Below are positions 35,968-37,161 of a DNA stretch of 64,000 nucleotides, piece by piece (the stretch's first letter is position 1; each line of letters opens with the position of its first letter). The position numbers and the translations under genes were made by a program. The stretch spans positions 62,001 through 126,000 of the forward strand of contig JAITSS010000046.1 of the NCBI GenBank assembly GCA_031287565.1. The letters run 5' to 3'. The notes under the pieces were generated by a model that worked only from the letters and a program-made list of their open reading frames with translations, had not been told where the DNA came from and searched no databases. Source of the DNA: Desulfobulbaceae bacterium (GTDB taxonomy: Bacteria; Desulfobacterota; Desulfobulbia; Desulfobulbales; Desulfocapsaceae).

Positions 35968-36050
35968 GTCATTGCCGCGTGCGCAAGCGGCAATCCAGGC
36001 CGTCGCATTTGCCATATCCTGCCTGGATGTCCGTCTGCGCGGGCATGACG
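35968..36050. repeat. MITE/REP-like palindromic element copy 1
   Basis: GTCATTGCCGCG...CGCGGGCATGACG ends, ATTGCCGC/GCGGCAAT hairpin, CCAGGC/GCCTGG stem. Confidence 0.6.
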
Positions 36051-36094
36051 GCTGTAGACCGCATTTTCTTCTGTCATTGCCGCGCTTTCTTCCC

Positions 36095-36174
36095 CGTCAT
36101 CCCCGCGCCAGCGGCAATCCATGCTGTTGCATTTGCAATATCCTGCCTGGATGTCCGTCTGCGCGGGCATGACG
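36095..36174. repeat. MITE/REP-like palindromic element copy 2
   Basis: gtcatccccgcgccagcggcaatcca...tcctgcctggatgtccgtctgcgcgggcatgacg; 3' half identical to copy 1; partial ends at 36073 and 36183. Confidence 0.6.
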
Positions 36175-36382
36175 AATTTTGTGTCATTGCCGCGCAAGTA
36201 GGGACACGGCGCGGCGTGTTCCTCGTCTGTACAACCCATAGATGGAGCTGAATAAAGCGCCTGTTCATGGTGAAGTTCTGTCGAAGCGCGAAGGGTTTCA
36301 CCCTTCGGCAGTTTTGGCGAACGGGAAAATAGCTTGTGTAGAGACTTCTGCGCTTGTGGGAGAGGGCGGCGCGAAGCGACGG

Positions 36383-36412
36383 GTGAGGGCTTTTGTTATA
36401 AAGCGCCCTCAC
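36383..36412. repeat. Imperfectly nested intergenic palindrome
   Basis: GTGAGGGC ... GCCCTCAC perfect 8-bp stem; adjacent CCCCTCTgCCGC/GCGGgAGAGGGG. Confidence 0.55.
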
Positions 36413-36453
36413 TCCCGCCCCTCTGCCGCAAGCGGGAGAGGGGAGAACAGCGT

Positions 36454-36823
36454 GTCACAATCGGAACCGGTTCCGTTCCCATCTCTGGGTTTTCCACTCC
36501 ATAGTTTTGCCGATGCAACAGTCACAATCGGAACCGGTTCCGTTCCCATCTCTGGGAAGTGTGTGGTTATAAACCCAGCAGTGGAAGTCACAATCGGAAC
36601 CGGTTCCGTTCCCATCTCTGGGAGTACCAGAAACAGTGAAGTTGGAAAAACCAAAAGTCACAATCGGAACCGGTTCCGTTCCCATCTCTGGGAATCCAAA
36701 CCCGCCACCCCAGGAGGTGACATGTCACAATCGGAACCGGTTCCGTTCCCATCTCTGGGGGAAAAAGTATGTATGGGAATCATGATGGTCACAATCGGAA
36801 CCGGTTCCGTTCCCATCTCTGGG
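36454..36823 (-). CRISPR. Orphan CRISPR-like array: 6 identical 36-nt repeats, 5 spacers (31, 30, 34, 31, 28 nt in + order)
   Basis: Repeat + strand GTCACAATCGGAACCGGTTCCGTTCCCATCTCTGGG at 36454, 36521, 36587, 36657, 36724, 36788; minus orientation ends ATTGTGAC, resembling ATTGAAAC-type crRNA handles; internal CGGAACCGGTTCCG palindrome. Confidence 0.75.
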
Positions 36824-36833
36824 ACTGGGCCGC

Positions 36834-36863
36834 ATCATAGCCAACAACGGCGCGGCTTTGCAA
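36834..36863 (-). promoter_or_regulatory. Possible sigma70 promoter directed into the repeat array
   Basis: Minus strand TTGCAA - 18 nt - TATGAT, ending 11 nt from first repeat. Confidence 0.3.
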
Positions 36864-36937
36864 CTGCCACATTGTAGTATGTGTCGCTGCCTATCGCATA
36901 ATATGTTTAGTTTCCAGGACATCCTACAATGTGGTAG
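36864..36937. repeat. Long inverted repeat, 14-nt arms
   Basis: CTGCCACATTGTAG (36864-36877) / CTACAATGTGGTAG (36924-36937), 13/14 complementary. Confidence 0.6.
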
Positions 36938-36949
36938 CTATTCCAGGTC

Positions 36950-36965
36950 TGGCATAGTTTTTGCT
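36950..36965 (+). promoter_or_regulatory. Sigma54-type -24/-12 promoter
   Basis: TGGCATAgtttTTGCT (GG-N10-GC), closely similar to the PEP-CTERM gene promoter. Confidence 0.5.
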
Positions 36966-37161
36966 TAACATAATATTTTCACGGTATTTCAATATGATAT
37001 TTGGTTTCTGTTTTCTTGGTTTTCCTGTCAATTATTCGCCCTTAAATCAAGGCGGCCGCTTGGAAAACCTGGCGCATCATTTTGGTGCTCAATGTTTGAA
37101 ATTTCGTAACACCGGGATAGCGCCAGACCTTGTTCCTCGCATCTGTTTTCCTCCGCCCGCC

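What the first reader, a model, noticed from the sequence alone, without database searches (positions are those of the whole stretch)
36454..36823. Orphan CRISPR-like array with perfect 36-nt repeats and short, variable spacers
Seen: six identical copies of GTCACAATCGGAACCGGTTCCGTTCCCATCTCTGGG separated by five unrelated spacers of 31, 30, 34, 31 and 28 nt. Unit lengths (67, 66, 70, 67, 64) are not in frame, so this is not a coding repeat. On the minus strand the repeat can form CGGAA-CCGG-TTCCG and CCCA-GAGA-TGGG hairpins and ends in ATTGTGAC, close to the ATTGAAAC-type 3' ends of type I/III repeats (established knowledge). The unusual points are spacers shorter and more variable than usual for type I/III arrays and the absence of any cas gene in at least 27 kb either side. 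It could be a trans-served array, a solo array of an unrecognised effector, or a set of protein-binding iterons.
Basis: partly seen in the sequence, partly recalled or inferred. Interest (0 to 1): 0.78.

Follow-up and report, generated by a model that had tools for sequence, protein, structure and literature searches.

The report
Satellite CRISPR array, type III-B system
This is a real CRISPR memory array that looks orphaned only because its Cas genes lie on another contig: it is one of eight small arrays with the same repeat and leader in one bacterial genome, most likely all used by a single known kind of RNA-sensing CRISPR system (type III-B with a CorA membrane effector).

Summary
In detail: six identical 36-nt repeats and five unrelated spacers of 28-34 nt lie at 36454-36823. 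It is not a solo array. The genome (2.7 Mb, 83 contigs, a congener of a Desulfobulbaceae MAG) holds eight arrays with this repeat. All carry a related leader of about 290 nt on the same side, with a sigma-70-like promoter pointing into the array. One, on contig C51, sits beside cas2-corA-cmr6-cmr5-cmr4-cmr3-cas10-cmr1, a type III-B locus with the CorA effector. A congener has the same repeat (1 mismatch) beside the same operon. The window array is best read as a satellite served in trans. No spacer is shared between arrays, but several overlap or are homologous, nearly all on the same strand (12 pairs to 1). This fits repeated sampling of related invaders and crRNAs kept in the orientation that pairs with invader mRNA. 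Multi-array genomes and III-B/CorA systems are known, so this is a new member of a known kind. An unusual by-product is the genome's only detected Cas1, a SWIM-zinc-finger-Cas4-Cas1 fusion, seen otherwise only in the congener among genomes sampled. Protospacers and Cas6 were not found; crRNAs were not testable.

The parts
36454..36823 (-). CRISPR array: six identical 36-nt repeats and five spacers (31, 30, 34, 31, 28 nt); inferred crRNA strand is minus
   Evidence: orientation from leader, promoter and cas-adjacent homologues
36490..36520 (-). spacer C34w_1
36557..36586 (-). spacer C34w_2
36623..36656 (-). spacer C34w_3; shares TGAAGTTGGAAAAACCAA with a C16 spacer and is similar to C53 and C77 spacers, same strand
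36693..36723 (-). spacer C34w_4
36760..36787 (-). spacer C34w_5; homologous to a C34a spacer, same strand
36824..37118 (-). leader of about 290 nt, related in all eight arrays (70-97% identity); similarity ends near GTAACACC
36834..36863 (-). sigma-70-like promoter TTGCAA-18-TATGAT pointing into the array; comparable hexamers at the same place in all eight leaders
36864..36937 (.). 19-nt inverted repeat inside the leader (CTGCCACATTGTAGTATGT / ACATCCTACAATGTGGTAG), largely kept in the other leaders; role unknown

Best explanation
The feature is a satellite CRISPR array of a type III-B (Cmr) CRISPR-Cas system with a CorA effector, encoded on contig C51 of the same genome. Shown: the array, its leader and promoter-like site, seven further arrays with the same repeat and related leader, one of them beside a cmr1-6/cas10/corA/cas2 operon, and strand-concordant homologous spacers. 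Inferred: the minus strand is transcribed from the leader promoter, cut in the repeat to crRNAs with an ATTGTGAC 5' tag, and loaded into the Cmr complex made from C51. On pairing with invader mRNA, Cas10 (GGDD intact) would make a nucleotide signal, by analogy SAM-AMP, that opens CorA. New spacers would be added at the leader end by Cas1-Cas2, perhaps using the SWIM-Cas4-Cas1 fusion found on C49. The dispersal of arrays probably came from duplication of a leader-plus-array module, followed by independent spacer turnover.
For: Eight arrays with the same repeat (C34a and C62 are joined by a 119-nt identical overlap). Leaders average 80% pairwise identity over 290 nt against 48% beyond it. On C51 the array and leader adjoin Cas2, CorA (3e-68), Cmr6, Cmr5, Cmr4, Cmr3, Cas10b (4e-53) and Cmr1 (6e-73). 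The congener G002 (Desulfobulbaceae UBA8130) has a 1-mismatch repeat beside Cas2 and the Cmr operon. Similar spacer pairs at score 20 or above: 12 same-strand against 1 opposite-strand, with 1.6 and 1.0 expected in shuffles; G exceeds C on the + strand in 32 of 40 informative spacers, p = 0.0002. Spacers are AT-rich (39% GC) in a window of 57% GC, as for foreign DNA.
Against: No protospacer was found in phages, plasmids or the viral-contig patterns tried, so viral origin is inferred. No Cas6 was found in this genome, although it is 86% complete and the search may miss divergent forms. No SAM-AMP-degrading partner was recognised on the C51 contig. There are no expression data.
Confidence: 0.9

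Rival explanations
1. A decayed, inactive relic: a dispersed copy of the array that is no longer transcribed or extended.
For: Solitary degenerate repeats exist elsewhere between palindromic dispersed repeats, so repeats do get stranded; no Cas6 found.
Against: All six repeats here are perfect, the leader and promoter hexamers are kept, and the spacers differ from those of every other array.
Confidence: 0.08
2. A solo array serving an unrecognised, non-Cas effector.
For: No cas gene near the window array.
Against: Identical repeat and related leader beside a full type III-B operon in the same genome, and the repeat with one mismatch beside the same operon in a congener.
Confidence: 0.01
3. A set of protein-binding iterons or a regulatory repeat.
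For: The repeat contains a 14-nt perfect palindrome CGGAACCGGTTCCG.
Against: Spacers are unrelated within an array, of narrow length range, AT-rich, and homologous on one strand across arrays; array with leader lies beside cas genes on C51.
Confidence: 0.01

Closest known systems
Type III-B (Cmr) CRISPR-Cas with CorA effector, as in Bacteroides fragilis (PMC10600005)
   Same: cmr1-6 with Cas10/Cmr2, adjacent corA, cas2 and an array; GGDD motif kept in Cas10.
   Different: Here most arrays are dispersed away from the operon; no NrN, DEDD or SAM-AMP lyase was recognised on the contig; cas1 is not in the operon; no Cas6 found.
Genomes with multiple CRISPR arrays of identical repeat (PMC12814883)
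   Same: One cas locus and several distant arrays with the same repeat and independent spacers; that survey reports that 25% of arrays share a genome with another of identical consensus repeat, and that larger numbers, up to around 10 arrays per locus, are rare but occur.
   Different: Eight arrays for one detected III-B locus is at the high end; a related leader of about 290 nt could be aligned for all eight.
Cas4/Cas1 fusion of type I-G (NCBIfam NF049935; PMC10504553)
   Same: The C49 protein matches the Cas4g/Cas1g model over residues 161-717.
   Different: Below the model's cut-off (500 against 560 bits), carries an extra N-terminal SWIM zinc finger, and in the congener lies beside a second type III-B locus.

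Membership tests
CRISPR array | identical direct repeats separated by unique spacers of similar length | tested here: met
CRISPR array | conserved leader with promoter at one end | tested here: met
   conserved leader and promoter-like site in all eight arrays
CRISPR array | spacers match mobile elements | tested here: inconclusive
   no hits in phages, plasmids or IMG/VR patterns
CRISPR array | transcribed and processed to crRNA | not testable with these tools
   needs RNA sequencing
Type III-B CRISPR-Cas | cas10/cmr2 with cmr1, cmr3-cmr6 | tested here: met
   all six on C51; not in the window itself
Type III-B CRISPR-Cas | array linked to the operon physically or by identical repeat | tested here: met
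   C51 array adjoins the operon; its repeat is identical to the window's
Type III-B CRISPR-Cas | Cas6 somewhere in the genome for repeat processing (common, not universal) | tested here: inconclusive
   no PF10040 match and no match to the congener's Cas6; genome 86% complete, and type III-B loci without their own Cas6 are known (own knowledge)
SAM-AMP/CorA signalling branch | CorA effector in the operon | tested here: met
SAM-AMP/CorA signalling branch | NrN, DEDD or SAM-AMP lyase partner | tested here: inconclusive
   none recognised among the ORFs of the 11.6-kb contig; no dedicated search of the rest of the genome

The most novel reading that the evidence does not exclude
The type III-B arrays of this genus are maintained by an unreported adaptation enzyme, a SWIM-zinc-finger-Cas4-Cas1 fusion, and the leader-plus-array module itself spreads to new chromosomal sites, giving a distributed immune memory whose parts sample the same invader genes independently.
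Probability: 0.2. Interest if true: 0.5.

Novelty: new member of a known kind. Interest (0 to 1): 0.3.

Why it matters
It shows that an array that looks orphaned within a 64-kb window can belong to a distant cas locus. Eight leader-bearing arrays with strand-concordant overlapping spacers would be a useful natural case for asking how type III systems distribute acquisition among arrays. The SWIM-Cas4-Cas1 fusion is a testable lead on how adaptation proteins gain extra nucleic-acid- or protein-binding parts.

Tried and rejected
Rfam on the array and leader gave only chance microRNA-like hits. Spacers (36 of the 44 recovered) against 50,697 phage records gave two 24-nt matches in 16S rRNA at E = 5, taken as chance; plasmids gave nothing. 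A 17-nt shared spacer core hit 14 viral contigs, but extension gave at best 26 of 34 or 24 of 31 matching bases, so they are not taken as protospacers. A 20-nt core from overlapping spacers and two codon-degenerate patterns gave no viral hits. The repeat itself is in no viral contig. The idea that the shared GTTGGAAAAACC encodes a Walker A motif was dropped, because another frame (LEK/LEKP) is open in all four spacers and the Walker A frame is not. An empty-site comparison at uvrC was uninformative: one congener has a transposase gene there and a different neighbour, the other contig ends in uvrC.

Full report
Observation. Six perfect 36-nt repeats and five spacers of 31, 30, 34, 31 and 28 nt are present at 36454-36823 exactly as described, and shuffles give no match. 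The repeat on the minus strand folds into two short stems followed by the single-stranded tail ATTGTGAC.

Genome context. The window is contig C34:62001-126000 of a 2.7-Mb, 83-contig genome estimated 86% complete. The repeat occurs 61 times with up to 3 mismatches, on contigs C4, C5, C16, C34, C35, C51, C53, C67, C74, C77 and C78. Extracted, these form eight arrays (C4, C16, C34a, C51, C53, C77, C78 and the window) plus solitary degenerate copies. A ninth leader copy at the end of C62 overlaps the C34a leader by 119 identical bases, so C34a and C62 are read as one array broken by the assembly.

Leader. Downstream of the last + strand repeat, all eight arrays share about 290 nt at 70-97% pairwise identity (mean 80%); the next 280 nt fall to 45-52%, which is background for this alignment. 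Read on the minus strand, TTGC(C/A)A and a TAT-starting hexamer 18 nt further on sit just before the first repeat in each leader. The scan finds the window's copy at 36863-36834, though about one such match per region is also expected by chance. The conservation at one position in eight leaders, rather than the scan alone, is the argument. Repeats are almost all identical while leaders have diverged by up to 30%, which suggests selection on the repeat (inference).

Cas genes. On C51 the array and leader adjoin, in order, cas2, corA, cmr6, cmr5, cmr4, cmr3, cas10 and cmr1. Cas10 keeps GGDD; no HD motif was recognised by eye in its N-terminal part. In the congener G002, whose record is titled Desulfobulbaceae bacterium UBA8130, contig C232 carries the homologous operon and a repeat differing by one base after cas2. 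That link between repeat and operon in two species is the main evidence that the window array belongs to the type III-B system. The CorA-associated III-B system of B. fragilis signals by SAM-AMP (PMC10600005; see also PMC11229360); applying that here is inference.

Cas1. The only Cas1 found is on the 3.9-kb contig C49: 717 aa with a SWIM zinc finger (residues 82-116), a Cas4-like part and Cas1. A 68%-identical homologue in G002 (C144) lies beside a different type III-B locus with its own cas2 and a Cas6. The other matches printed among 58 relatives, and at a strict threshold among 396 genomes of the phylum, cover the Cas4-Cas1 or Cas1 part, or the N-terminal part alone, not all three. No paper held here was found to join SWIM to Cas4-Cas1. 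Whether this enzyme serves the window's array family is unknown.

Spacers. Forty-three spacers of this genome were compared. None is identical to another. Twelve pairs score 20 or more on the same strand and one on opposite strands; shuffles average 1.6 and 1.0. The stronger groups are C51_5/C77_1/C34a_x4 (overlapping tiles of one sequence), C16_4/C34w_3/C53_1/C77_5 (in one open frame each reads LEK or LEKP), C34w_5/C34a_x1, and C51_8/C77_7 (LYV(E/Q)LAEAR). Pairs within a group are not independent. G exceeds C on the + strand in 32 of 40 informative spacers. The simplest reading is that different arrays sampled homologous genes of related invaders, and that the kept spacers give crRNAs antisense to mRNA. 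[quoted passage not shown] Because no protospacer was found, the sense strand here is inferred from skew and from the aligned open frames only; every spacer also has an open frame on the other strand.

How it spread. The module shared by the loci is leader plus array. At the far end several arrays abut short palindromic dispersed repeats, and solitary repeats lie between such elements. I found no transposase tied to the module and no clean empty site, so the route of dispersal is open; duplication by recombination is the default.

Verdict. A real, probably functional satellite array of a type III-B/CorA system. Multiple arrays with one repeat are common (PMC12814883), so it is ordinary in kind and at the high end in array number, with the SWIM-Cas4-Cas1 fusion as the one feature a specialist might not expect.

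Noticed in passing
L034:562-2715 (contig C49, minus strand): A 717-aa SWIM-zinc-finger-Cas4-Cas1 fusion, the only Cas1 found in the genome; 68% identical homologue in the congener (L073:139-2157) beside a second type III-B locus.
   Followed up: partly
L016, L017, L018, L019, L020 (contigs C5, C35, C74, C67, C34:138017): Solitary, slightly degenerate copies of the 36-mer lying between palindromic dispersed repeats; three (C5, C35, C74) share the same variant and the same 3' flank, as if copied together.
   Followed up: partly
window 35981-36174 and 36350-36450: Short palindromic dispersed repeats next to the trailer end of the array (two 70-nt copies 93% alike, and a GGGAGAGGG...GGGGAGAA element); similar elements flank the trailer ends of other arrays.
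   Followed up: no
L073 and L074 (congener G002, contigs C144 and C119): The congener carries a second type III-B-like locus (a Cas10 start with an HD motif, Cas6, a RAMP gene and its own cas2) besides the CorA-type locus; C119 has further RAMP genes.
   Followed up: partly
L087:3638-4537 (congener G001): A transposase gene that looks like the IS30 family lies near uvrC where the window has the array.
   Followed up: no
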